A DNA stretch of 50,851 bases from Gammaproteobacteria bacterium (GTDB lineage Bacteria > Pseudomonadota > Gammaproteobacteria > Pseudomonadales > Pseudomonadaceae): positions 1-50,851 of the forward strand of contig JAHIWP010000011.1 of the NCBI GenBank assembly GCA_018816095.1. Direction: 5' to 3'. The notes below the pieces were generated by a model. That model searched no databases. It worked only from the letters and a program-made list of their open reading frames with translations, and had not been told where the DNA came from. Of this stretch, positions 36,767-50,058 are shown piece after piece. Both the position numbers and the translations under genes were made by a program. Each line of letters opens with the position of its first letter. Position 1 is the stretch's first letter.

Positions 36767-36843
36767 GGGCCCATAGCTCAGTTGGTTAGAGCAGAGGACT
36801 CATAATCCTTTGGTCCACGGTTCGAGTCCGTGTGGGCCCACCA
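36767..36843 (+). tRNA. tRNA with anticodon CAU, probably tRNA-Ile2 (lysidine type)
   Basis: A 77-base tRNA with encoded CCA. The acceptor stem is GGGCCCA / TGGGCCC with discriminator A; the D-arm is TAGCTCAGTTGGTTAGAGCA. The anticodon loop is CTCATAA (CAT at 36801-36803), and the T-arm GGTTCGAGTCC is intact. CAU can read Met or, after lysidine modification by TilS, the Ile codon AUA. The C4-G69 and C5-G68 pairs and the anticodon-arm sequence ending in TTTGGTC are closer to E. coli tRNA-Ile2 than to elongator tRNA-Met, so I prefer Ile2. The accessory genes start just after it. Confidence 0.88.
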
Positions 36844-37724: not shown

Positions 37725-40625
37725 ATGTCGACGCACAATCCCACAAGCAGCCTCACACCCCACCACGCCAAGTATTTCGCCTGGGAGCTGACGCGCCGCC
37801 GTGCAGCCAGCGAAGAAGACCGGCTTTCTCAGTCGCTCTTCGATGCCAGTGTCGACCTCAACCCACACCAGATTGATGCTGCCCTTTTTGCCTTGCAAAA
37901 CCCTCTGAGCAAAGGCGTGATACTGGCTGACGAAGTCGGCTTGGGTAAAACGATTGAAGCCGCCTTGGTTCTAGGCCAGCTCTGGGCCGAACGTCGCCGT
38001 CGTCTCTTGGTCATCTGCCCAGCGGCACTACGCAAGCAATGGGCGCAGGAGCTTTCTGAAAAATTCAATTTGCCCACCCAGGTCTTGGATGCCCGCACCT
38101 GGAAACAGCTCCGCCAGGATGGCATCTACGACCCGCTGGATCGCGACGTTATCAGCATCATGTCGCTCCACTTTGCCGCGCGTATGGAAGAGCAGCTGGG
38201 CAATATTCCCTGGGATTTAGTCGTCATCGACGAAGCTCACAAGCTGCGCAATGCTCATCGCAAAAGCAATGAAACCGGTCAATCGCTCAAACGCTCACTG
38301 GCTGGACGGCGCAAGCTCCTACTGACAGCTACTCCGCTGCAGAATTCGCTGATGGAGCTGTATGGTCTCAGCTCGCTGATTGACGAGGATATCTTCGGCG
38401 ATGAGCGCAGCTTTCGCGCTCAGTACAACAACACCGATGGTGACCTGGCAGCTTTGCGCCGCCGTTTGCAGGCCTTTATCAAGCGCACCCTGCGTAGGGA
38501 TGTTCTGGAGTACGTGCCCTATACCCAGCGCCATGCGCTGACCACACCATTTACCCCGAGCGATGACGAGCAGCGGCTCTATGACCTTATTTCCGCGTAC
38601 CTGCACCGCGACTTCAGCTACGGCTTCCCACAGCGTCAGAAGCATCTCGTCGCGCTTATTCTGCGCAAGCTGCTGGCCTCCTCGACTGAAGCGGTTCTCG
38701 CCACACTGGAGGCGATTAAAGCCCGCTTACAGAAGCTGCTGGATCGCCAGAGTATCGATGAGGAATGGTTCGAGCACCTGATTGAAGAAGACGACTTGGA
38801 GGAAGACCTTCTCGAAGCAGCGGAAGAGTCAGCCAACTACGAGGCCCATGACTCAGCCAACAAAGTCGACTTTGAGCTGCTGAGTAAAGAAATCGCCGAG
38901 CTCGATGTTTATATCGAAATCGCTCACAGCATTCGTGAAGACCAAAAATCCTTCGCCCTTCTGAACGCGCTGGAACAAGGCTTTGCACGCATGTCCGGTA
39001 TGGGCGCACCGCGTAAAGCAGTGATCTTTACCGAGTCACGCCGTACCCAAGAATACCTGGCTCGTTTTCTTGAGGCTCATGGGCACGCCGGTAAGGTTGT
39101 CACCTTCAGCGGTGGCAATCAGGGTGAAGCCGCTACCGGCATCTATCAGCGCTGGCTGGCTCGTTACCATGGCAGCGACCGTGTCACCGGCTCCCCCGCC
39201 ATCGACCGCCGCACCGCGCTGATCGACTATTTCCGCGATAAAGCTGAAATCCTTATCGCCACAGAGGCAGCCGCCGAAGGTGTGAACCTGCAGTTCTGCT
39301 CCCTGGTGGTGAACTATGACCTGCCCTGGAACCCCCAGCGTGTAGAGCAACGTATTGGTCGTTGCCATCGCTACGGCCAGCGCTTTGACGTGGTTGTGAT
39401 CAATTTCCTCAACCAACGCAATGCCGCAGACCAGCGCGTATTGGAGCTACTGCAGGACAAGTTTCACCTGTTCGATGGCGTCTTTGGTGCGTCTGACCAA
39501 GTGCTCGGCAGGATCGAAGCCGGCATCGACTTCGAGAAACGCATTGCCGAAATCTACGACTGCTGCCGCACACCTCAAGAGATCGACGCCGCCTTCGCCA
39601 GCCTGCGCGCGGAACTGGATGCGGATATCCAGGCACGCATGCTGGAAACCGAAAAGCTCCTGCTGGAAAATTTCGATGCAGACATCCACAGCCTGCTCAA
39701 AACCCACAAAGAACGCGCTGAAAGCCAGCTAGATAGAATCACTCGCCTTTTTTGGCAACTGACCCAGTATATCTTGGCAGAGCAAGCCAGGTTCGACAGT
39801 AACCTACTGACCTTCGACCTCAGCCTACCGCCCCTCCCCCAGATCGCAACCGGGCACTACCAGCTCATTCGCAAGGGCGAGCTAGCAAAACAAGCTCAGA
39901 TTGAAAACACCCGAATCTACCGCCTGACGCACCCACTGGGCGAATACGTACTCGATCAGGGACGTAATGCTCCTGCACCCACAGCCACTCTGCGCTTCAG
40001 CTATGCGCAATGGCTGGAAGGCCGCAACCCGCGCATCAGCGTCATCGAGCAACTGGTCGGTCAGCAGGGCTGGCTTCAGCTCAACTTGCTGGAGCTCGAC
40101 AGCTTTCAACGTGAAGAGCACCTGGTATTCACCGCCATGGCCGATAGCGGCGAACTGCTCGACCAGGAAACCTGCGAGAAACTCTTCCAGCTCTGCGCTA
40201 CCGCCGAGCCAACCCACAGCGCCCCACCGGATGATCTGCATGGCAATGCTCGTCGCCAGATCGATGCCGCATTGAGCCAAGCGTTGGAGCAGAACGACAA
40301 ATTCTTCCAGCAAGAGCGCGAAAAACTCGATGCCTGGGCCGAAGACCGCATCCTCGCTGCCGAACAAGCCCTGCAAGATACCAAGCTCAAGCTGAAGGGC
40401 CTGAAGCGACAAGCCCGCACCGCCCAGAGCATGGACGAGGCACGCCGACTGCAGGATGACATCCGCAAGGTAGAAGGCGAACAACGCCGGCAACGCCAAG
40501 AAATCTTCGCCGTGGAGGACGAAATCGAAGCCCGCCGTGATGCCCTTATCGAGGCTCTGGAAAAACGCCTGCATCGTGCCAGCCGTACCCAAACACTGTT
40601 CACTGTGCGCTGGGGCGTGAGCTAA
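37725..40625 (+). CDS. Snf2/HepA-class ATP-dependent helicase of the defence cluster
   Basis: A 966-residue superfamily 2 DNA translocase. Motif I is A-D-E-V-G-L-G-K-T (about 68-76), and motif II is D-E-A-H (169-172) in V-V-I-D-E-A-H-K-L-R-N. Motif III is L-T-A-T-P-L-Q-N, and motif VI is Q-R-I-G-R-C-H-R-Y-G-Q (about 541-551). The C-terminal 110 residues form a long charged coiled coil. The DEVGLGKT form is that of the RapA/HepA and DISARM DrmD-like group. The start is taken at MSTHNPT with a GAGGGA ribosome site, not the open codons upstream. It is the first gene of a helicase-fic-mod-res series and probably moves along or remodels DNA for the system. Confidence 0.88.
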   Translation: MSTHNPTSSLTPHHAKYFAWELTRRRAASEEDRLSQSLFDASVDLNPHQIDAALFALQNPLSKGVILADEVGLGKTIEAALVLGQLWAERRRRLLVICPAALRKQWAQELSEKFNLPTQVLDARTWKQLRQDGIYDPLDRDVISIMSLHFAARMEEQLGNIPWDLVVIDEAHKLRNAHRKSNETGQSLKRSLAGRRKLLLTATPLQNSLMELYGLSSLIDEDIFGDERSFRAQYNNTDGDLAALRRRLQAFIKRTLRRDVLEYVPYTQRHALTTPFTPSDDEQRLYDLISAYLHRDFSYGFPQRQKHLVALILRKLLASSTEAVLATLEAIKARLQKLLDRQSIDEEWFEHLIEEDDLEEDLLEAAEESANYEAHDSANKVDFELLSKEIAELDVYIEIAHSIREDQKSFALLNALEQGFARMSGMGAPRKAVIFTESRRTQEYLARFLEAHGHAGKVVTFSGGNQGEAATGIYQRWLARYHGSDRVTGSPAIDRRTALIDYFRDKAEILIATEAAAEGVNLQFCSLVVNYDLPWNPQRVEQRIGRCHRYGQRFDVVVINFLNQRNAADQRVLELLQDKFHLFDGVFGASDQVLGRIEAGIDFEKRIAEIYDCCRTPQEIDAAFASLRAELDADIQARMLETEKLLLENFDADIHSLLKTHKERAESQLDRITRLFWQLTQYILAEQARFDSNLLTFDLSLPPLPQIATGHYQLIRKGELAKQAQIENTRIYRLTHPLGEYVLDQGRNAPAPTATLRFSYAQWLEGRNPRISVIEQLVGQQGWLQLNLLELDSFQREEHLVFTAMADSGELLDQETCEKLFQLCATAEPTHSAPPDDLHGNARRQIDAALSQALEQNDKFFQQEREKLDAWAEDRILAAEQALQDTKLKLKGLKRQARTAQSMDEARRLQDDIRKVEGEQRRQRQEIFAVEDEIEARRDALIEALEKRLHRASRTQTLFTVRWGVS

Positions 40626-40697
40626 CGCGTCGCTAAAAGTCCATTTTAAGAACATATCGGGAGCACATGTCGTCACCAGCTACACGAGAGCAAAACA

Positions 40698-40724
40698 TGT
40701 CGCTGAAACTAAAAAATAGCGACA
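40698..40724. promoter_or_regulatory. operator-like inverted repeat upstream of fic
   Basis: TGTCGCT and AGCGACA form a perfect inverted repeat around 13 A-rich bases. It lies 97 bases before the fic start in the only sizeable gap of the cluster. A related direct copy of ACATGTCG lies at about 40662. A site for a dimeric repressor is the natural reading, but no regulator gene is in the cluster unless the Fic protein's winged helix serves. Confidence 0.45.
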
Positions 40725-40760
40725 CGTTAAACACACATGTTTACACTGACGCCACGATTA

Positions 40761-40780
40761 GGGCGCTCACCAGAGCGCCC
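40761..40780 (+). terminator. hairpin between helicase and fic (weak terminator or attenuator)
   Basis: Perfect 8-bp stem GGGCGCTC / GAGCGCCC with ACCA loop followed by TTGCCTTT. The short broken T-run suggests partial termination, separating helicase from fic-mod-res expression. Confidence 0.5.
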
Positions 40781-40820
40781 TTGCCTTTAGATGGATACCC
40801 CAAGGATCAGGATCGCATCC

Positions 40821-41942
40821 ATGACTGCATCCCCCCTCCCCTGGCAGGCCGACAAGCCCTATAACCAGCTGCCGCCCTTGCCGCCTACAGCAGAGCTGGA
40901 GACCCGTGCAGTGCTCAAGCGCTGTATCGAGGCCCGCACAGCCCTGGCTGAGTTGAAACAGGCCGCCGAGCTGATCCCCAACCAAACGGTGCTGATCAAC
41001 ACCATCCCGCTGCTGGAAGCCAAGGACAGCTCGGAAATCGAAAGCATCGTTACGACCACTGACTTGCTCTTTCAGCATGCCCAGGATGGCGATAACCATG
41101 CCGATCCAGCCACTAAGGAAGCCCTGCGCTACCGCAAGGCCCTGCACCACGGCTACCAGTCGCTGGCCGAGCGCCCACTCTCCACCAGCACTGCAGTCGA
41201 GATCTGTCGCACGCTCAAGGGTGTCAACATGGACATCCGCCGAGTACCAGGCACCCAGCTGGCCAACGACCGCACTGGCGAGATCATCTACACCCCACCG
41301 GAGGGTGAAGACCGCTTGCGTGACCTGCTCGCTAACTGGGAGCGCTTCCTGCACAACGAGACCGACCTAGACCCGCTGGTACGCATGGCCGTTGGGCATT
41401 ACCAGTTCGAAGCCATCCACCCGTTCACCGATGGTAATGGCCGCACAGGGCGCGTGCTCAACACCCTGTACCTGATTCAGGAAGGTCTGCTGAGCCTGCC
41501 GATTCTCTACCTCAGCCGCTACATCATCGCGCACCGCGCCGATTACTACCGCCTGCTGCTCGATGTCACCCGCGAACAAGCCTGGGAGCCCTGGCTGCTG
41601 TACATGCTCAGCGCCGTAGAAGAAACCGCTCGCTGGACTACGGCCAAAATTGCCGCCATCCGCAATCTGTCCGAACACACCACCGAGTTCGTCCGCGCCC
41701 AACTGCCGAAAACCTATTCCCGCGAGCTGGTGGACGTGATTTTCGAGCAACCCTACTGCCGCATCAGCAACGTCGTCGACAAACAAATTGCCCAGCGTCA
41801 GGCCGCTTCTCGCTACCTCAAAGAGCTAGTCGCCATCGGCGTCCTGCAAGAGGTGCAGGTCGGCAAGGAAAAGCTCTTTATCCATCCCAAGCTGATGCAA
41901 CTATTGATTCGCGACAGCAACGACTTCAAGCCCTACGCCTGA
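40821..41942 (+). CDS. Fic family protein (putative AMPylase) of the defence cluster
   Basis: A 373-residue class II Fic protein. The N-terminal Fic/DOC-N region holds the inhibitory helix L-E-A-K-D-S-S-E-I-E-S-I (S70 to E74). The usual (S/T)xxxE(G/N) ends here in Ser75. The catalytic motif H-P-F-T-D-G-N-G-R-T-G-R starts at His200 and is complete, so AMP transfer from ATP to a target protein is expected. A C-terminal winged-helix region (about 310-365) may bind DNA. The start at 40821 has AGGA upstream; the in-frame ATG ten codons earlier does not. It lies 20 bases before mod, so the two are linked. It could be an effector, a toxin or an internal switch. Confidence 0.88.
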   Translation: MTASPLPWQADKPYNQLPPLPPTAELETRAVLKRCIEARTALAELKQAAELIPNQTVLINTIPLLEAKDSSEIESIVTTTDLLFQHAQDGDNHADPATKEALRYRKALHHGYQSLAERPLSTSTAVEICRTLKGVNMDIRRVPGTQLANDRTGEIIYTPPEGEDRLRDLLANWERFLHNETDLDPLVRMAVGHYQFEAIHPFTDGNGRTGRVLNTLYLIQEGLLSLPILYLSRYIIAHRADYYRLLLDVTREQAWEPWLLYMLSAVEETARWTTAKIAAIRNLSEHTTEFVRAQLPKTYSRELVDVIFEQPYCRISNVVDKQIAQRQAASRYLKELVAIGVLQEVQVGKEKLFIHPKLMQLLIRDSNDFKPYA

Positions 41943-41962
41943 CCCATTTTTGAGAAGTCCAC

Positions 41963-44900
41963 ATGAGCAAGCAAAAAGACCAATTTATCGCCCTGCTGGG
42001 TGAGCTCTTCCAGCTCAATCAACCTGAGCTCGACTTCGGCCTGTACCGCATCCTTCACGCCCGTAGCGCACAGATAAAGGCCTTTATTGATACCGAACTG
42101 GGTAGCGAGATCGATGCCCACTTTGCCGGCCAATCGCAAAGCAACGCCCATGACGCGTTAGAAGCTGCCCGCGTAAAAGTCGCTGAAGCCCTCGGCGAGG
42201 ACGCCTTCCTGCCTACGGGTGAACTGAAACCTGAATATCGCGGCACCAAGGTTGGCAAAGAATTCGAGCTGGCCCAGCAGCATGCCCGCGATGGCGGCGG
42301 TGTGCTGGCTGACGATGCCCAGGTATACGAACACCTGTATCGTTTCTTTAGCCGCTACTACGACAAGGGCGACTTCATGTCGAAGCGCTACTTCGTCGCC
42401 GAAAACGACAGCCGTGCCGCACCTTATGCTGTGCCCTACGATGGCCGCGAAGTCATGCTGCACTGGGCCAACAAAGACCAGTACTACATCAAATCGAGCG
42501 AGGCACTCAGCAACTTCACCTTCGATCTCACCGCAGCCCAGGCGAGGGAGCAGGGCCCGCAGAGCGGCTTCGAATTTCAGCCAGCAGCCACAGCGCCGCT
42601 GAAGGTGCATTTTCGCCTGGCCGCCGCCGCCGAGGGCGAGCACAACAACGTTAAAGAAGGCCAGGAGCGCTTCTTTATCATTCACGCTGCCGAACCGTTG
42701 AAGCTCGAAATCAACGGCCAGGGCCAGCCGGAACTTGTCGTGCAGTTCGACTACCGTCCCGATACTGAAAAATCCGGTCAGGCCGGCACCTGGCAGCAGA
42801 AGCGCCTAGCAGAGGCCGAACAGGTTGTAGGCGAGCAGCTCGCCAACCTGGTGTTTACTTACCCAGAATTGCGCGCCTTCGAGCAGCCACTGTTTGCTCC
42901 AGCACCTACCGACAAGCAGCCTAACCGTACACTGCTGGGCAAATACCTTGGGCAGTTCACCGCCCGTAACACCATGGACTACTTTATCCACAAAAACCTT
43001 GGCGGGTTCCTTCGTCGCGAGCTGGATTTCTATATCAAGAACGAGATCATCCGCCTCGACGATATCGAGGCCGCCGATGCACCGCGCGTGGATGAATACC
43101 TGAAGAAGCTGCGGGTGCTGCGCAAGATTGCCAAGCGCATTATCGACTTTCTAGCCCAACTCGAAGACTTCCAGAAGAAACTCTGGCTCAAGAAAAAATT
43201 CGTTGTCGAGACCCAGTACTGCATCACCTTGGATCGCATACCGGAAAGCTTTTATCCCGAAATCGCAGCCAATGATCAGCAACGGGAAGAGTGGGTGAAA
43301 TTATTTGCCATTGATGACATCCAGGCAGATATGGCACAACCAGGTTACAGCAAACCTCTGACTGTTGATTTTCTGCGAGCCAACCCATTTCTGACGGTCG
43401 ATACCCGCCTCCTTCACGAAGACACAAAAGCAAAGTTGCTTGCTAGCTTGACTGACCTCGATGAAAACTGCAGCGGCATTCTGTTACACGGTGATAACTT
43501 CCAAGCGCTGAATCTTGCACAAAACCGACTGCACAAGCAGATAAAAGCCGTCTATATCGACCCGCCCTACAATACAGACGCAGGGCCTATTGCATACAAG
43601 AACGGTTACCGCAGCTCGTCTTGGTGCTCACTTATGGCAGACCGGCTTGCGATCACTCCGTCCCTGATGAGCATCGATGGTGTTTTGTGCGCCACAATTG
43701 ATGATTACCAGCAACGTGAACTTAGCTACCTCATTGAACAGCAGTTCGGAAAAGACAACCTGCTTGGCACCATTGCCGTTCGTATCAACCCGTCTGGCCG
43801 CCCAGTACCAAGTGGTCTAGCGCAAGCACACGAATATGCCATTTTCGCCAGAAACACCTCAGCAGGAGAACTGGAGAAGCTTCCTCGGAGCGAAAAACAG
43901 TCCGCCCGCTACAAGCAGGAAGATGAAAATGGTAACTTTATGTGGGAGCTATTTAGGAAAAGAGGATCAAACTCAGAGCGAAAAGATCGTCCATCTCTTT
44001 TCTATCCGCTATATGTAATGGGTGAGTCAATACGCGCCCCTAAGATGAACTGGGATGAAGACAAAAGAGTATGGACAGATATAGAGCCACCAAAACAAGG
44101 CGAAGTAGTTGTCTACCCACTTGACGACTCAGGCAGTGAAAGAACTTGGAGAGGAAAGCCAAGCAATGTGGTGGGAGCGCCTGAAAACTATAAAGCAAAA
44201 ACCAACGATGATGGCAGCATTACCGTTTACTATAAATTTCGCCCAGGCTCAGAGGGTGTACTTCCTCCAACCAACTGGATTGACTCCAAGTATTCGGCAA
44301 CTGAGCACGGCACCGGCGTACTAAAACACTTCTTTACTGGGGTGAGCCCATTTACTTATCCAAAGTCAATCTATGCAGTAGAAGACTGCCTCCGTATTTC
44401 AGGACTTGGAGACTCACAATACGCTCTCGACTATTTTGGCGGATCAGGAACAACTGGGCATGCCGTAATAAATCTCAATAGAGAAGATGGCGGAAACCGA
44501 AAATACGCCTTGGTTGAAATGGGTGTTTATTTCGACACAGTTCTCAAGCCTCGCATTCAAAAAGCGGCCTATTCCAAAGACTGGAGCGAAGGAAAACCCG
44601 TATCTCGGGAAGGTGTTAGCCATTGCCTGAAATACATTCGGCTAGAGTCTTTCGAAGACACACTAAACAATCTGCAACTGCCAGAAACTTCCCGCCTAAA
44701 TGTTAGCGCGACGGACTCCAATGAGATGGCCCGCGACTACCTACTCAAATACTGGCTGGAGTTCGAAACGGCTGGTAGTCCGAGCCTGCTCAATGTGCGC
44801 GAGTTTACCGACCCCACGTCCTACAAACTCAAGGTCAAGCAGGCCGGCAGCGATGCCCAGGTAGAGAAGACCATCGATCTGGTGGAAACCTTCAACTGGC

Positions 44901-45322
44901 TGATTGGCCTGCATGTTGCCCACCTCGACCAACCGCGCCGCTATGCCATTGAGTTGGTGCGTGAGACCGATCCGGAACTACCCAAAGACCAAGATACGCG
45001 CTGGCGCTCCAGCGCCATCAAGGAACGCGATGATGGCGAATTCTGGTTCAGGGCCGTGGAGGGTCACATCCTCAGCGTACCGGGAGACGACTTGTCGCGT
45101 GAACGTGTGCTGGTGATCTGGCGCAAGCTGACCGGCGACTCCGGTCGCGATCAAGCCGCCCTTGAAGCCTGGCTGAACAAGCGCGGCATCAACCCGCGTG
45201 AAAGCGAGTACGCCTTCATCTACATCAACGGTAACCATGCCCTACCCAGCGATGGCGATGCCGCCACACGCGTGCGCCTGATCGAAGAGACCTTCGCCCT
45301 GCGTATGTGGGAGGACGCTTGA
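41963..45322 (+). CDS. long type III-like adenine DNA methyltransferase (Mod)
   Basis: A 1119-residue DNA methyltransferase. Motif IV is Y-I-D-P-P-Y-N-T (DPPYNT at 533-538), and motif I is D-Y-F-G-G-S-G-T-T-G (825-832). The order IV before I is that of beta-class N4/N6 methylases such as type III Mod and the PF01555 family. Two features are unusual. There is an about 530-residue N-terminal extension, where type III Mod normally reaches DPPY near residue 120. The segment between the motifs (43.8-44.7 kb) is AT-rich with AGA, AGG and ATA codons unlike the flanks, suggesting an acquired target-recognition region. One base separates its stop from the res start. Confidence 0.9.
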   Translation: MSKQKDQFIALLGELFQLNQPELDFGLYRILHARSAQIKAFIDTELGSEIDAHFAGQSQSNAHDALEAARVKVAEALGEDAFLPTGELKPEYRGTKVGKEFELAQQHARDGGGVLADDAQVYEHLYRFFSRYYDKGDFMSKRYFVAENDSRAAPYAVPYDGREVMLHWANKDQYYIKSSEALSNFTFDLTAAQAREQGPQSGFEFQPAATAPLKVHFRLAAAAEGEHNNVKEGQERFFIIHAAEPLKLEINGQGQPELVVQFDYRPDTEKSGQAGTWQQKRLAEAEQVVGEQLANLVFTYPELRAFEQPLFAPAPTDKQPNRTLLGKYLGQFTARNTMDYFIHKNLGGFLRRELDFYIKNEIIRLDDIEAADAPRVDEYLKKLRVLRKIAKRIIDFLAQLEDFQKKLWLKKKFVVETQYCITLDRIPESFYPEIAANDQQREEWVKLFAIDDIQADMAQPGYSKPLTVDFLRANPFLTVDTRLLHEDTKAKLLASLTDLDENCSGILLHGDNFQALNLAQNRLHKQIKAVYIDPPYNTDAGPIAYKNGYRSSSWCSLMADRLAITPSLMSIDGVLCATIDDYQQRELSYLIEQQFGKDNLLGTIAVRINPSGRPVPSGLAQAHEYAIFARNTSAGELEKLPRSEKQSARYKQEDENGNFMWELFRKRGSNSERKDRPSLFYPLYVMGESIRAPKMNWDEDKRVWTDIEPPKQGEVVVYPLDDSGSERTWRGKPSNVVGAPENYKAKTNDDGSITVYYKFRPGSEGVLPPTNWIDSKYSATEHGTGVLKHFFTGVSPFTYPKSIYAVEDCLRISGLGDSQYALDYFGGSGTTGHAVINLNREDGGNRKYALVEMGVYFDTVLKPRIQKAAYSKDWSEGKPVSREGVSHCLKYIRLESFEDTLNNLQLPETSRLNVSATDSNEMARDYLLKYWLEFETAGSPSLLNVREFTDPTSYKLKVKQAGSDAQVEKTIDLVETFNWLIGLHVAHLDQPRRYAIELVRETDPELPKDQDTRWRSSAIKERDDGEFWFRAVEGHILSVPGDDLSRERVLVIWRKLTGDSGRDQAALEAWLNKRGINPRESEYAFIYINGNHALPSDGDAATRVRLIEETFALRMWEDA

Positions 45323-45323
45323 G

Positions 45324-48300
45324 ATGGCTCGCGCCCCGCGAAAAAGTAAAGTTCAGCCACCACTGGTAGCCAGCCACTTTCAGGATGCGCTGGTACTCAA
45401 TCAGTATCTGATCAGCCTGTTTGGCATCGATCCGCTGGCGACTCATAGGGATGAAGGTCGCCCGGTGCGGCCACTGGAGATCATCGCCAAGTCGCTGCGC
45501 AGCGCTGAGCCGGGCATCGGCCCGGACGGCAAGCACCGTTTTCTGACGAAGCTGATTTCGCACCTGCCGCCCCATGCAACACTGACTCCGGTTGAGCTGG
45601 AGCGTTACGACGCCAACCTGGTGGCTCACACGCGGGCCATCAATGCCCGGCGCAAGCACAAGGGAGACATCGCCTGGAAGTACTTCCAGTGGCTGACTCT
45701 GCTGTTTGTTGAAATCTACCTCGACCGCTACTTCAATGACCGTCAGGGGCTCTGTGCGGCGCTCAATGAATTTATTGAGCGCTTCAACCAGCACCACCAG
45801 GGCCAAGGACGCGAAACGGGCATCGGTGCTTATGCTGTTGAAGACCTCAACAAGCTCTGCCTGCAAAACGCCACAGGCAGCGGCAAGACGTTGCTCATGC
45901 ATGTGAATTTGCTGCAGTTTTCCCAGCATGCGCGGGCGACCGGCCAGGCCGATGCTTTCAGCCGGGTCATTGTGCTGTCGCCGAACAAACGCCTGTCTGA
46001 GCAGCACGAGCGAGAGCTACGCGAGAACGGCTTTTACCCGGAGCCACTGCGCCAGGAAAGCGACCTGATCTCACGCGGGCAAAACGCCCTCGATGTGCCG
46101 CTGCTGACCGAAATCACCAAGCTGGCGGACGAACAGAAGGTCAAGCAGATGGCCGTCGACAGCTTTGGCGATGGCAACCTGCTGCTGGTGGACGAAGGCC
46201 ACCGAGGCATGAGCGGCAGCGACTGGAAAAGTAAGCGTGACAAGCTGGCGGCCAAGGGCTTCACCTTCGAGTACTCGGCCACCTTCAAGCAGGCAGTCAA
46301 GGCTGCCAATGACCGCGTATTGGCTGAAAGCTACGCCAAAGCCGTGCTGTTCGATTACAGCTACCGCTATTTCTATGCCGATGGCTATGGCAAGGACTAC
46401 CGAATATTCAACCTGCCCAAGGATGAACTGGCCCACAAGGACATCTACCTGACCGCTGCCCTGTTAGGGTTTTATCAGCAGCTGCGCATGTTCACCGAGG
46501 CGGGCAATCGCTATACCGGCTACAACCTGGAAAAGCCCTTGTGGGTCTTTGTCGGTGCCAGCGTCACCGGGCGCAAGGTCGATGAGGAAAGCGTATCGCC
46601 GTCCGATGTGGCACAGATCCTCGACTTCCTGGCGCGCTTCCTCGCCCACCGGGAAGATTTCACCGCCCTTATTCACACCGTGCTCAACGGCAACAGCCAG
46701 CAGACAGGCCTGGTCGATGCCCAAGGCCACGATATCTTCGTACAGTCCTTCCCCTACTTGAAAGGTCTGAAGCAAAGCGCAGCACAGCTCTATGCCGACA
46801 TCTGCCAGCGCCTATTTCATGCGCCTGGCGGCGGTCACTTAGTGGTTGAGCGCGTGAAAGGTGACAGCGGCGAGTTGCTGCTGAAGGTTGGCGAAGCCGA
46901 CCAACCCTTTGGCGTCATCAACGTCGGCGATGCGGCGGCGTTGGCCAAGCATGTGCAGGACGAGCTGGAAGACAAACACTCCTTGGCCGAGGTACGCCCC
47001 AGCGAGTTTGGCGAGCCGGTGTTTGGCGACGTACACAAGCCCACCTCGCCTATTCACATGCTGGTCGGCTCGAAGAAGTTCATTGAAGGTTGGGACTGCT
47101 GGCGAGTATCCAGCCTCGGCTTGATGCGCATGGGTCAAAGCGAAGGCGCACAGATCATTCAGCTGTTCGGGCGCGGCGTGCGCTTGAAAGGCAAAGACAT
47201 CAGCTTGATGCGTACCAGCCGTTACCAGCCGGTGAATCCACCAAAGGATATCCACTTCCTGGAAACGCTGAACGTGTTCGGCGTGCAGGCTGACTTTATG
47301 GCGACCTTCCGCGACTTCCTCGAAAGCGAAGGCCTGCCGCCAAATGATGCACCGCATGTTGAGGAAATCACCCTCAACGTCACCCACGACTTTGGCCAGA
47401 AGCTGAAGATCCTGCGCTCCAAGTTCCGCAAGGACACCCAGGAGCAGTACGACTTCCGAAAGCATGGCCCCATTGTAGATTTCAGCATCGGAGCTCTCCC
47501 GCCTGGCCTGACCAAGGGGGGAATGCCCTTGGTGGTTGACCGCTTCCCACGGCTGCAAATGATCCAGGCCAAAGAGGTTGTGGGCCAGGCTCCTGAGGCA
47601 GCCGACAACCCACCACGTCACTTCGATGCATTGCGCCTGTCGATGCTCGACTGGGACAAGTTGTGGTTCGATCTGGAGCGCTTTCGTCGCCAGCGGCACC
47701 TGGACAACATCATCGTTAAAGCTGAAGCGCTACGCCCATTGTTGGAGACCCCAGACTGGTATCGCGTCCTGGTGCCCGCGCACTGGTGGGCACCGTCGAT
47801 GGCCAACCTGCGTCACTGGCAATCGATAGCCTTCGAACTGCTCTGCGGTGCCCTGGAGCGCTGCTTCAATCACCAAAAGCGCAAATACCTCGATCCGCGC
47901 ATGGAACTGGTTCTGCTCACCCGCGAGAACGAAAACCTGCCGGGTGACGACATCAATTACCAGTTGATCGTCGAGGCTACCGAGCAGTACCTGATCGACG
48001 ACATCAAAGCGCTGAAAGAAGAGCTCGCCCAGGTCGGCTGGCGTGACCATGGCCACGTCCAAGGCCTAAGGCTGGATGCTCACCTCTATGAGCCGCTGCT
48101 TTCCAGCGAGAAGGTGAAGATCCAGCCTGTCGGCCTTAACAAGTCCGAGTTTCAATTCGTCGAAGACTTGCGCCTCTGGCTGGTGGCCAACGAAACGAAT
48201 CTTGCTGAACGTGGAGAGCGCATCTTCCTGCTGCGCAACCTGGCCAAGCAGGGCGTCGGTTTCTTTGAGGCTGGCAATTTCTATCCCGACTTCATCCTCT

Positions 48301-48602
48301 GGTGTTTGAAGTCGGATGGCAGTCAGCGCATCTGCTTTATCGACCCGCACGGACTGGAACACGAAGGCCCTGGCAGCGACAAAATCCAGCTCTCGCAAAA
48401 CATCAAGGATCTGCAGGCGCGCCTGAATGATCCTGGGGTCACGCTGGAGTCGGTCATCCTGTCACCGAGCACGAACCGCATACGCATCCAACACCTGTGG
48501 AGTCAGCAAGGATTGCCAGCCCCAGATCTGAATGCATTGCATGTTTTCTTCATCGGGGAACCAGACTACATCGGCAAGGTGATGGAGCTGGTGTCCGCTT
48601 AG
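45324..48602 (+). CDS. type III restriction Res-like helicase/endonuclease
   Basis: A 1092-residue superfamily 2 protein of the type III restriction subunit class. Walker A is A-T-G-S-G-K-T (about 183-189), motif II is D-E-G-H (290-293), and motif VI is Q-L-F-G-R-G-V-R. The C-terminal end has a PD-(D/E)xK-like arrangement: Y-P-D-F-I-L-W with Asp989, then F-I-D-P-H-G with Asp1007 and His1009. His stands where Lys is normally found, so nuclease activity is plausible but not certain. It starts one base after mod and must be co-expressed with it. Together they would form a methylate/cleave pair that the helicase and Fic protein assist. Confidence 0.88.
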   Translation: MARAPRKSKVQPPLVASHFQDALVLNQYLISLFGIDPLATHRDEGRPVRPLEIIAKSLRSAEPGIGPDGKHRFLTKLISHLPPHATLTPVELERYDANLVAHTRAINARRKHKGDIAWKYFQWLTLLFVEIYLDRYFNDRQGLCAALNEFIERFNQHHQGQGRETGIGAYAVEDLNKLCLQNATGSGKTLLMHVNLLQFSQHARATGQADAFSRVIVLSPNKRLSEQHERELRENGFYPEPLRQESDLISRGQNALDVPLLTEITKLADEQKVKQMAVDSFGDGNLLLVDEGHRGMSGSDWKSKRDKLAAKGFTFEYSATFKQAVKAANDRVLAESYAKAVLFDYSYRYFYADGYGKDYRIFNLPKDELAHKDIYLTAALLGFYQQLRMFTEAGNRYTGYNLEKPLWVFVGASVTGRKVDEESVSPSDVAQILDFLARFLAHREDFTALIHTVLNGNSQQTGLVDAQGHDIFVQSFPYLKGLKQSAAQLYADICQRLFHAPGGGHLVVERVKGDSGELLLKVGEADQPFGVINVGDAAALAKHVQDELEDKHSLAEVRPSEFGEPVFGDVHKPTSPIHMLVGSKKFIEGWDCWRVSSLGLMRMGQSEGAQIIQLFGRGVRLKGKDISLMRTSRYQPVNPPKDIHFLETLNVFGVQADFMATFRDFLESEGLPPNDAPHVEEITLNVTHDFGQKLKILRSKFRKDTQEQYDFRKHGPIVDFSIGALPPGLTKGGMPLVVDRFPRLQMIQAKEVVGQAPEAADNPPRHFDALRLSMLDWDKLWFDLERFRRQRHLDNIIVKAEALRPLLETPDWYRVLVPAHWWAPSMANLRHWQSIAFELLCGALERCFNHQKRKYLDPRMELVLLTRENENLPGDDINYQLIVEATEQYLIDDIKALKEELAQVGWRDHGHVQGLRLDAHLYEPLLSSEKVKIQPVGLNKSEFQFVEDLRLWLVANETNLAERGERIFLLRNLAKQGVGFFEAGNFYPDFILWCLKSDGSQRICFIDPHGLEHEGPGSDKIQLSQNIKDLQARLNDPGVTLESVILSPSTNRIRIQHLWSQQGLPAPDLNALHVFFIGEPDYIGKVMELVSA

Positions 48603-48884: not shown

Positions 48885-48966
48885 GTCAGTGCAACGGTAC
48901 TTTATAGTCAGCGCAACGGCAAATCCTAGCCAATGCAACGGTAGTGGATAGCCAACGCAACGGTAC
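48885..48966 (+). repeat. plasmid-type replication origin: four iterons at 22-bp spacing
   Basis: Four copies of GYCARYGCAACGG begin at 48885, 48907, 48929 and 48951, each exactly 22 bases apart, two helical turns. They read GTCAGTGCAACGGTAC, GTCAGCGCAACGGCAA, GCCAATGCAACGGTAG and GCCAACGCAACGGTAC. Iterons of this spacing bind the replication initiator side by side, as TrfA does on RK2. The last copy ends at the stop codon of the rep gene. With the DnaA box and AT repeats this makes a full oriV. Confidence 0.85.
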
Positions 48967-49856
48967 TACTTTTGACCTTTTGCGGATTTCGACTTGCGCT
49001 GCAAATGACGGAGCTGACTATCGCTTGGTACCTGTTCGACGTGAACATTGCCGTTGTGAATTCGATAGCTGAATGCTTTTTGATGTGTGGCACGGGCATG
49101 AGCAAGGGAGTCCAGTGCTCTGCGCAAGTTTTGCTCCGCGCTTTGGGTAGACCTGTCAGTACTGCCAGCCATTTGCATGAGTGTTTTGATCGAAACAGGA
49201 AATGGTTCAGCATGACTGGAGTAGTAGCCATGTAGCCACTGCGCTAGGGGCTTACTGTTGAGTAGTCGGCGGATGCTCCAGTCGACCCAAGTAATACCCT
49301 TTTTGTCAAAGAGGCTGTATAGCGCTGGGTTGAGGACCACCACCAACTCTTCCGTCGATTCGTCTCGGTAGGTCGCGTCTACCAAGCTACCCGTGTAAGG
49401 GTAGCGAAAGTCGATAATTTCAACCTTTGACGTCTCCAGCTTTGCCAAGCATTTGTAGAGGTTTTTACGGTTAGCGCCAGTGTCAGTTTTATGTTGCAGC
49501 TTGAGCAGCGAATAAGCGCTTGTCCGAAGTGGCAGGTTGAGGCGATTACCCCGGGCCAGATGCAGGAGCGTGATCCATACGTCATGATCAGCCTGATTGA
49601 GTTGCGGCCCTGTATACCTTATGCGGGTCGGGCTCTGCGCGAAAATCTCCTCCTTCACCAAATCCTGGCTTGATCTGCTGGAGCTGAACAGTGCTGAGCG
49701 CAGTAAAATATTAGGCACTCCACGGTGTGAATCGGGCCAGCTGGGTAGCTTGCGACCATCCAGGCCCTCAGTCGGTTTAACGGAGGAGGAGCGACTCAAG
49801 GCAGCTTCGGCCATTCGCGCAACTTTGTTACTAGTCGTCCTGGCTTTGGACGACAT
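48966..49856 (-). CDS. TrfA-like plasmid replication initiator
   Basis: A 296-residue replication initiation protein of the TrfA family. The conserved block G-V-P-N-I-L-L-R-S-A-L-F, R-I-R-Y-T-G-P-Q-L-N-Q-A-D-H-D-V-W and L-L-H-L-A-R marks the initiator fold. A disordered N-terminal tail (about 1-50) precedes it, and the C-terminus is basic (R-K-S-K-S-A-K-G-Q-K). It should bind the iterons at its own 3' end and load the helicase DnaB. It is shorter than RK2 TrfA (about 382 residues) but like the chromosome-borne relatives. The start is uncertain: ATG at 49856 or GTG at 49880, both with weak ribosome sites. It converges with res across the origin. Confidence 0.85.
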   Translation of the reverse strand: MSSKARTTSNKVARMAEAALSRSSSVKPTEGLDGRKLPSWPDSHRGVPNILLRSALFSSSRSSQDLVKEEIFAQSPTRIRYTGPQLNQADHDVWITLLHLARGNRLNLPLRTSAYSLLKLQHKTDTGANRKNLYKCLAKLETSKVEIIDFRYPYTGSLVDATYRDESTEELVVVLNPALYSLFDKKGITWVDWSIRRLLNSKPLAQWLHGYYSSHAEPFPVSIKTLMQMAGSTDRSTQSAEQNLRRALDSLAHARATHQKAFSYRIHNGNVHVEQVPSDSQLRHLQRKSKSAKGQK

Positions 49857-50058
49857 TGGTATCTGATAGCGCTCTCCCACGTTTCAGGCCATTCGCAGAG
49901 GTGATACTTGATGGCGAAACTCGAAACGGTCTAGAGCTACGGCGCACGAACCCAACACCAAAGTCACTGATGCACGCATGACGACTGAACCTCGGATTTG
50001 CAGGCGCAAGCACGCCCGCAAACCATCTGCTGGTCTGTAAAAAATCTGTAGTGGGGGC

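What the first reader, a model, noticed from the sequence alone, without database searches (positions are those of the whole stretch)
37725..48602. Four-gene Snf2 helicase - Fic - Mod - Res cluster, candidate combined defence system
Seen: a DEVGLGKT-type Snf2 helicase, a class II Fic protein with intact HPFTDGNGRTGR, a beta-class methyltransferase with DPPYNT, and a Res-like helicase/nuclease in the same direction with 20-base and 1-base gaps for the last three. Known: Mod-Res pairs are type III restriction systems, Snf2 proteins occur in DISARM, and Fic proteins AMPylate targets and can be toxic. I know no named system with exactly these four parts. Inference: restriction may be backed by a Fic-triggered shutdown or by Fic control of the restriction proteins.
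Basis: partly seen in the sequence, partly recalled or inferred. Interest (0 to 1): 0.85.

Follow-up and report, generated by a model that had tools for sequence, protein, structure and literature searches.

The report
Restriction operon with built-in Fic toxin
A widespread three-gene bacterial DNA-restriction core, which in different bacteria carries different extra toxin-like genes, has in this Pseudomonas lineage stably taken up a cell-stopping Fic enzyme together with the stretch of DNA that probably controls it, and the same control sequence also turns up in virus genomes.

Summary
The four genes are real, intact and collinear. Snf2, Mod and Res form a core found in several phyla (of 67 loci with room, Snf2 upstream in 53, Res downstream in 67). 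Two slots between the core genes hold exchangeable effector-like genes: AAA plus DUF4276, Fic, GmrSD, RhuM, AbiJ, YhcG, PIN and others. Fic is one such cargo, yet not sporadic here: on a tree of 89 Res proteins the 10 loci with a slot-A Fic form one clade without exception (7 of the 10 were found without looking for Fic). The Fic is a SoFic, a known stand-alone anti-phage AMPylase; 95-96% identical copies sit elsewhere, two beside type I R-M genes. Mod's methyltransferase middle has been swapped between otherwise similar loci. New: the Snf2-Fic gap holds an inverted-repeat array (TGTCG-N17-CGACA-N13-TGTCG-N7-CGACA); such repeats lie at 39 of 47 Fic genes in varied contexts and so probably control fic-mod-res. 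The exact array also occurs in 89 viral contigs, with 0 matches for two control patterns. Best reading: restriction backed by a self-repressed Fic toxin, as in PrrC-EcoprrI. Operator use, trigger and toxicity are inferred.

The parts
37725..40625 (+). Snf2 (SWI2/SNF2) helicase, DrmD-like, 966 aa
   Evidence: under the DISARM DrmD cut-offs; upstream of Mod in 53 of 67 loci with room
40668..40724 (-). inverted-repeat array, one mismatch: IR17 (TGTCG-N17-CGACA) at 40698-40724 and an imperfect IR7 at 40668-40684; putative operator of fic-mod-res
   Evidence: IR17 or IR7 beside 39 of 47 Fic genes examined; extended IR17 pattern occurs once in the own assembly (3.53 Mb, 87% complete), control 0
40760..40781 (+). 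perfect 9-bp hairpin between array and fic, also readable in the Pseudomonas relatives; possible terminator or attenuator
   Evidence: not listed by the terminator scan
40791..41942 (+). SoFic-type class II Fic AMPylase with C-terminal SoFic-like_C domain; likely start 40821
   Evidence: PF13784, PF02661, PF21248; NF046030, 663 bits
41963..45322 (+). Mod, beta-class adenine MTase of type III kind with about 480-aa N-terminal and 220-aa C-terminal extensions
   Evidence: Mbo45V matches profile positions 481-893, other solved Mods lie within it
43313..44662 (+). variable middle block of mod (about aa 451-900, MTase plus target recognition), lower GC (46-52% per 400 nt against mostly 53-61% elsewhere in the cluster)
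   Evidence: aa 501-880 32-42% identical in seven relatives (66-92% and 55-90% at the ends), 90% in L009; DNA identity 48-54% there in four Pseudomonas relatives; model has low-confidence joints at 453-461 and 897-940
45324..48602 (+). Res, SF2 helicase with C-terminal PD...DPHG nuclease-like motif
   Evidence: no sequence relative among solved structures at E 0.001
36767..36843 (+). tRNA-Met(CAT), possible island edge
   Evidence: three short strings from its 3' end have no second copy in the window; the window is the whole contig, so an edge may lie beyond
48966..49880 (-). TrfA-like replication protein right of the cluster
   Evidence: PF07042

Best explanation
It is a type III-like restriction-modification system with an embedded abortive-infection toxin. 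Mod (methylation, specificity) and Res (translocation and cleavage), helped by an Snf2 motor, restrict unmodified phage DNA. A SoFic AMPylase sits as cargo in the slot between snf2 and mod, and fic-mod-res form one operon started by Fic's own control region. The C-terminal winged-helix domain of SoFic binds the TGTCG/CGACA inverted-repeat array and represses the operon, as shown by others for the Fic-HTH protein CccR. When phage infection removes this repression or restriction is overcome, Fic rises and AMPylates cell targets, stopping growth, while Mod and Res rise with it. Shown here: gene order, conservation, domains, purifying selection, exchangeable slots, swapped Mod specificity block, array conservation. 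Inferred: single operon, repression by Fic, trigger, toxicity, cooperation of Snf2.
For: Core Snf2-Mod-Res in several phyla. Slots filled with known or suspected defence effectors. One clade of 10 slot-A Fic loci, SH-aLRT 100 (7 of them found without a Fic search), with parallel divergence of Snf2, Fic and Res and dN/dS 0.035-0.151. In Zoogloea L068 the Fic is of another subfamily (32% identity) but the slot and the array are kept. Array: 41 IR17 and 26 IR7 upstream of 47 Fic genes against 0.15 expected each; array with up to two mismatches at 10 of 11 over-cut-off SoFic genes in 369 genomes. 20-nt and 1-nt gaps after fic. Literature: SoFic toxicity and abortive infection (PMC12249575, parts 1-2 of 4 read); autorepression by CccR (PMC9755527, passages); PrrC held by its R-M enzyme, and R-M plus RloC plus DOC loci (PMC3710099, section 10 and passages).
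Against: No DNA binding, expression, methylation or phage assay could be run. SoFic is often found without these genes, so it does not need them. The array is not exclusive to Fic: G138, G268 and G984 have it without a Fic, L160 has it (two mismatches) upstream of Nmad2-snf2 in a core locus without Fic, and only 3 of 89 viral contigs have a Fic within 700 nt of it, so another binder is possible. L010 lacks the window-type Snf2. The window's own IR7 is imperfect. In the Fic inhibitory motif the usual N is S (SSEIES), a lineage feature of unknown effect. Res has H for the usual K of its nuclease motif, although 36 of 89 Res proteins read DPHG or EPHG. The window's clade may hold Fic-less members that the capped Mod scan (best 80 of 577) did not keep; a Res search of plasmids found no Res over 60% identical (26 records), and one viral contig at 46%.
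Confidence: 0.55

Rival explanations
1. Independent passenger: SoFic is a mobile single-gene defence that landed in a type III-like R-M locus and was carried along; restriction and Fic act separately and the array is only Fic's private operator.
For: SoFic elsewhere alone or beside other genes: 0 of 10 other SoFic genomes in 369 have this Mod family, 15 of 19 other carriers in the genus have it outside the cluster; 95-96% identical copies beside hsdMSR; repeats travel with Fic.
Against: No Fic-less member seen in the clade of 10 (with the sampling limits stated); Fic replaced by another Fic in the same slot in L068 with the array kept; mod and res follow fic within 20 and 1 nt; three further gains of Fic in slot B.
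Confidence: 0.3
2. The array belongs to a regulator or recombinase other than Fic, shared with phages and other defence genes, and fic-mod-res is one target of it.
For: Exact array in 89 viral contigs, 3 with a Fic beside it; arrays beside an AbiEi-like gene (L333), in a locus with an ADP-ribosylglycohydrolase and, by eye, a RhuM-like gene (L335), and upstream of Nmad2-snf2 (L160).
Against: In the class sample arrays with at most one mismatch lie at a Fic gene (one broken) or a Fic remnant in 10 of 12 genomes, own included; I found no other conserved neighbour in the few bacterial cases; SoFic carries a predicted C-terminal winged helix.
Confidence: 0.25
3. An ordinary type III R-M pair with unrelated Snf2 and Fic neighbours.
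For: Mod and Res alone match PADLOC type III models.
Against: Snf2 directly upstream in 53 of 67 loci with room; Fic in all 10 of the clade.
Confidence: 0.06

Closest known systems
Type III restriction-modification (EcoP15I-like Mod-Res)
   Same: Beta-class Mod core (solved Mbo45V, Mod and EcoP15I Mod match the middle of the profile), adjacent SF2 Res, PADLOC MTase_III and REase_III
   Different: Extra N- and C-terminal Mod extensions, an Snf2 core gene, effector slots, and a Res without a solved sequence relative
SoFic single-gene anti-phage AMPylase
   Same: NF046030 over cut-off, PADLOC SoFic, class II inhibitory and catalytic motifs
   Different: Embedded in an R-M operon; no room for an AS1-like antitoxin gene between fic and mod (20 nt); N to S in the inhibitory motif
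EcoprrI-PrrC (type I R-M with latent anticodon nuclease)
   Same: Toxin gene embedded in an R-M operon (PMC3710099 section 10)
   Different: Type III-like enzyme, AMPylase instead of tRNase, probable transcriptional instead of reported protein-level restraint
DISARM
   Same: DrmD-like Snf2 plus a methyltransferase
   Different: Snf2 under the DrmD cut-offs; none of the other six ORFs scanned around the cluster hits a Drm model, and a DrmA model hits only the Snf2, under stronger DrmD hits
CccR, Fic-HTH autorepressor
   Same: Class II Fic with C-terminal HTH, palindromic operator upstream of its own gene (PMC9755527 passages)
   Different: Secreted T6SS effector with another operator; not described as part of an R-M locus

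Membership tests
Type III R-M | Beta-class N6 MTase with motif IV before motif I | tested here: met
   DPPYNT at 533, GSGTT at 827; PF01555
Type III R-M | Adjacent Res with SF2 helicase and PD-(D/E)xK nuclease | tested here: inconclusive
   Helicase motifs met; nuclease motif reads PDF...DPHG, with H for K (36 of 89 Res proteins have DPHG or EPHG)
Type III R-M | Hemimethylation of an asymmetric site, ATP-dependent two-site cleavage | not testable with these tools
   needs long-read methylomes and enzyme assays
SoFic | Curated SoFic model above cut-off, Fic motif, N-terminal inhibitory motif, SoFic-like_C domain | tested here: met
   663 of 550 bits; PF21248; HPFTDGNGRTGR and SSEIES (E kept, N to S)
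SoFic | Toxic AMPylation and phage protection | not testable with these tools
   reported for E. coli Sofic
DISARM | DrmD above cut-off with drmA, drmB and drmC | tested here: not met
   648.8 of 950 and 276.6 of 610 bits; no separate Drm ORF among the seven scanned (the best 25 of 48 PADLOC hits are shown for Snf2); the rest of the genome was not searched
PrrC-EcoprrI-like latent toxin | Toxin kept inactive by the R-M enzyme and released by anti-restriction | not testable with these tools
   works-like proposal only
Fic-HTH autorepressor (CccR-like) | Palindromic repeats upstream of its own gene | tested here: met
   IR17 or IR7 at 39 of 47 Fic genes
Fic-HTH autorepressor (CccR-like) | The Fic protein binds those repeats and represses | not testable with these tools
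   needs binding and reporter assays

The most novel reading that the evidence does not exclude
SoFic senses phages by operator titration: it represses itself (here also mod and res) from the TGTCG/CGACA array, and phage genomes that carry the same array, near their head and packaging genes, pull it off as they replicate, or the array DNA switches its AMPylase, so that toxin and restriction come on together. The phage array would be the trigger, or a phage decoy that has evolved against it.
Probability: 0.15. Interest if true: 0.88.

Novelty: new variant of a known kind. Interest (0 to 1): 0.62.

Why it matters
It replaces an unnamed four-gene cluster by a rule: a conserved Snf2-Mod-Res core with two plug-in slots for toxins and other defences, where one lineage has kept a Fic in the same slot across four genera. 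It also gives a concrete, testable candidate for how SoFic is controlled. PMC12249575 calls its activation during phage infection elusive, and PMC10628234 (2023, passage) says that DNA binding by SoFic had not been shown. The same element in viral genomes offers a possible trigger.

Tried and rejected
Rejected: DISARM (below cut-offs, no separate Drm ORF among those scanned). Set aside on weak grounds: transposon end or recombinase site for the array; I weighed these from memory only, and the sole data are that single repeats are rare in the rest of the same loci (10 IR17 and 10 IR7 in 868 kb, some of them just outside the upstream windows). Rejected: Fic as a part of all Snf2-Mod-Res loci (11 of 98 examined). 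Rejected: an AS1-like antitoxin gene between fic and mod (20-nt gap); a 54-codon ORF that starts in the Snf2-Fic gap (40667-40828) was not pursued.

Led nowhere or limited: no match of the cluster in E. coli genomes (megablast). Literature searches for SoFic, type III R-M and Snf2 (20 of 25 papers listed), Fic with these (3 listed), DUF4276 with R-M (none), R-M with RhuM, Fic, YhcG and accessory genes (none) and embedded effectors (9 listed) showed no paper that I recognised as describing this core; I saw listings, and passages of two (PMC12839542, PMC3710099). The library is open access only, so absence is not proof. One search (SoFic, operator, autoregulation; 12 of 78 papers listed) showed none on such an array. 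A structure model of Mod (mean pLDDT 73, pTM 0.46) was not searched against folds. The first tblastn run gave empty output for all 13 loci; repeated with two positive controls for 5 of the 13, the other 8 rest on the profile search. The first gene caller hid genes under antisense ORFs in GC-rich loci (on which rests); redone. Slot ORFs were called mechanically and some may be spurious. One search missed the Fics of L010 and L016; added by hand. 109 of 131 slot ORFs plus these two (111) went to the family scan; the 22 left out are 72-134 aa long. The PADLOC table is cut at 25 families and shows only the AAA group beyond the first member. Repeats at Fic genes were counted with two upstream windows: 38 of 47 and 39 of 47.
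Full report
Observation. The Fic is over the curated SoFic cut-off (NF046030, 663 bits, cut-off 550) and a SoFic in PADLOC. The Snf2 is nearest DrmD of DISARM but under both cut-offs. Mod and Res match PADLOC type III models. Fic may begin at 40821, where by eye an AGGA site precedes the ATG; then the catalytic His is residue 200.

The core and its slots. The loci range over Pseudomonadota, Bacteroidota, Bacillota, Planctomycetota, Nitrospirota and others, and include a haloarchaeal plasmid, L008, that lacks Snf2. Of 58 loci with both core neighbours visible on one strand, 42 have a further ORF of about 100 aa or more in slot A (Snf2-Mod) or slot B (Mod-Res); the ORFs are called mechanically. 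Of 111 slot proteins scanned (109 of 131 called, plus two added by hand), Pfam finds AAA_21 in 20, DUF4276 in 13, Fic in 11, GmrSD_N in 6, RhuM in 4, AbiJ_NTD4 in 4, YhcG in 3, and PIN, Zeta toxin and HNH in 2 each. PADLOC matches the AAA group to defence ATPases (list cut at 25 families). So the cluster is a core with exchangeable cargo.

Is Fic a real part? On a tree of 89 Res proteins the 10 loci with a slot-A Fic (window, L009, L010, L011, L016, L022, L037, L193, L194, L068) form one clade with SH-aLRT 100 and no Fic-less member; the three slot-B Fics (L034, L040, L157) are separate gains. A Res search of plasmids gave 26 records, all under 60% identity, so no further clade member; a viral scan gave one relative at 46%. 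Identity to the window runs in parallel for Snf2, Fic and Res: L009 99/97/96, L193 92/94/90, L016 77/78/76 %. In L068 the core is as close (76 and 79%) but the Fic is only 32% identical, another subfamily in the same slot. L010 lacks a window-like Snf2. L010, L016 and L068 also carry AAA and DUF4276 genes in slot B. dN/dS of the four genes is 0.035-0.151 against four relatives, with Mod's middle left out.

Against this, SoFic lives mostly elsewhere. In 369 genomes of the class, SoFic is over the cut-off in 11 and the Mod family (E 1e-100) in 9, and only the window's genome has both. In 398 genomes of the genus a SoFic-like gene (E 1e-60) is in 20 including the own; of the other 19, four lie in Snf2-Fic-Mod-Res and 15 elsewhere, among these one at 47% identity and one fragment (two of the four lie on contigs of the same lengths as those of L009 and L011 and are taken as the same). 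Two of the 15, 95-96% identical to the window's Fic, sit next to hsdM, hsdS and hsdR of type I systems. The Fic tree mixes linked and unlinked copies. SoFic thus moves, but in this lineage of the core it has been kept.

Mod specificity. Mod residues 501-880 are only 32-42% identical between the window and L193, L194, L011, L022, L010, L016 and L068, whose N-terminal parts are 66-92% and C-terminal parts 55-90% identical; L009 is the exception with 90% in the middle. DNA identity falls to 48-54% there in the four Pseudomonas relatives L193, L194, L011 and L022, and window GC to 46-50% in three to four 400-nt bins. The window's middle is closer to Mods of remote organisms, such as Hymenobacter (57%, with 50% and 40% at the ends), than to those seven. 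The middle is the part that matches solved type III Mods, and an AlphaFold2 model of moderate quality has low-confidence joints near both borders. So specificity blocks appear to be exchanged while the rest of the operon is kept.

The array. The Snf2-Fic gap carries inverted repeats TGTCG-N17-CGACA and TGTCG-N7-CGACA. Upstream of 47 Fic genes there are 41 of the first and 26 of the second, against 0.15 expected each from the rest of the same loci; no other spacer up to 40 nt occurs more than twice. Near copies make the rows dependent, but the repeats recur in linked, hsd-linked, stand-alone and plasmid Fics. 39 of 47 have them; the eight without are the three slot-B Fics, four distant Fics (L186, L187, L189, L207) and L212. 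The combined array with up to two mismatches is at 10 of 11 over-cut-off SoFic genes in 369 genomes (all but G201) and in 31 of 369 genomes overall, many of the other matches probably chance; the backward control matched in 9 genomes by my count of the table. With at most one mismatch it is in 12 genomes, 10 of which have a Fic (own included, G223 broken) or a Fic remnant (G192) beside it, not G138 or G268. In 398 genomes of the phylum it is in 4: own, G1114 with SoFic, G984 and G1032 without. Core loci without a slot Fic hold 2 IR17 and 5 IR7 in 1.5 Mb; one of these IR17, in L160, is part of an array upstream of Nmad2 and snf2. So the array goes mainly with Fic, not with the core.

Function of the array. 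SoFic has the C-terminal domain PF21248; L068 and L157 match HTH families in that part. CccR, another class II Fic with HTH, binds palindromes at its promoter and represses itself (PMC9755527, passages), and CbFic2 binds DNA via its HTH, with DNA-induced activity according to its title (PMC10628234, passages, which also says that DNA binding had not been shown for SoFic). I infer that SoFic binds the array. Because mod and res follow fic within 20 and 1 nt, the same control would reach them. Whether the newer SoFic entries of the structure archive already show DNA I could not see.

Viral arrays. The exact array is in 89 viral contigs, 69 distinct arrays, 41 groups by flanking DNA; 3 have a Fic within 700 nt. 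A backward pattern and one with other spacers gave 0. Letters that were not searched for also agree: the two inner half-sites read WYRTGTCG (or its complement CGACAYRT) in both the Fic set (33 arrays) and the viral set (68); at the outer right end they differ. 59 of 89 do not lie inside an ORF of 150 aa or more. Neighbouring viral proteins include terminases, head maturation proteases, a portal and virion proteins (90 of 116 flanking ORFs scanned, 25 of 140 families shown). This is unexplained. It may mean that phage DNA titrates or activates SoFic, that phages carry a decoy, or that a third protein reads the array.

Mechanism. Restriction by Mod, Res and Snf2 as first line, Fic-driven growth arrest as second, both under Fic's own operator, is the best-supported reading. 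The logic is that of PrrC with EcoprrI and of the R-M plus RloC plus DOC loci proposed in 2013 (PMC3710099, section 10). What differs is the type III-like core, the interchangeable slots, the long retention of Fic and the putative operator.

Noticed in passing
L214-L302 (IMG/VR contigs), e.g. L278:3539-3595, L243:3882-3938: Exact TGTCG-N17-CGACA-N13-TGTCG-N7-CGACA arrays in 89 viral contigs, 3 with a Fic beside it, often near head and packaging genes; two control patterns gave none.
   Followed up: partly
window 43313-44662: Low-GC, swapped MTase middle block of mod, closer to some remote organisms than to seven of eight near relatives.
   Followed up: yes
L191, L192: SoFic 95-96% identical to the window's beside type I hsdMSR in other genomes of the genus.
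   Followed up: yes
window 45324-48602 and relatives: Res nuclease motif varies between DPKG (47), EPHG (21) and DPHG (15) of 89, 6 without a match: a possible K-to-H active-site variant.
   Followed up: partly
L333:9815-9871, L335:3600-3656, L160:2422-2478: The same array without Fic upstream of an AbiEi-like gene, in a locus with ADP-ribosylglycohydrolase and (by eye) RhuM-like genes, and upstream of Nmad2-snf2 (the last with two mismatches).
   Followed up: partly
L212: SoFic gene lying inside the VirB-type transfer gene cluster of a conjugative Salmonella plasmid; 161 of 260 plasmid records with a Fic hit were Salmonella.
   Followed up: no
L011, L022, L037, Snf2-Fic gap: Extra insert-like sequence between the hairpin and fic, displacing the array from the gene.
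   Followed up: no
L289 and L243: Two viral contigs with the array upstream of related prohead-protease-like genes (by eye), one with and one without a Fic between.
   Followed up: no
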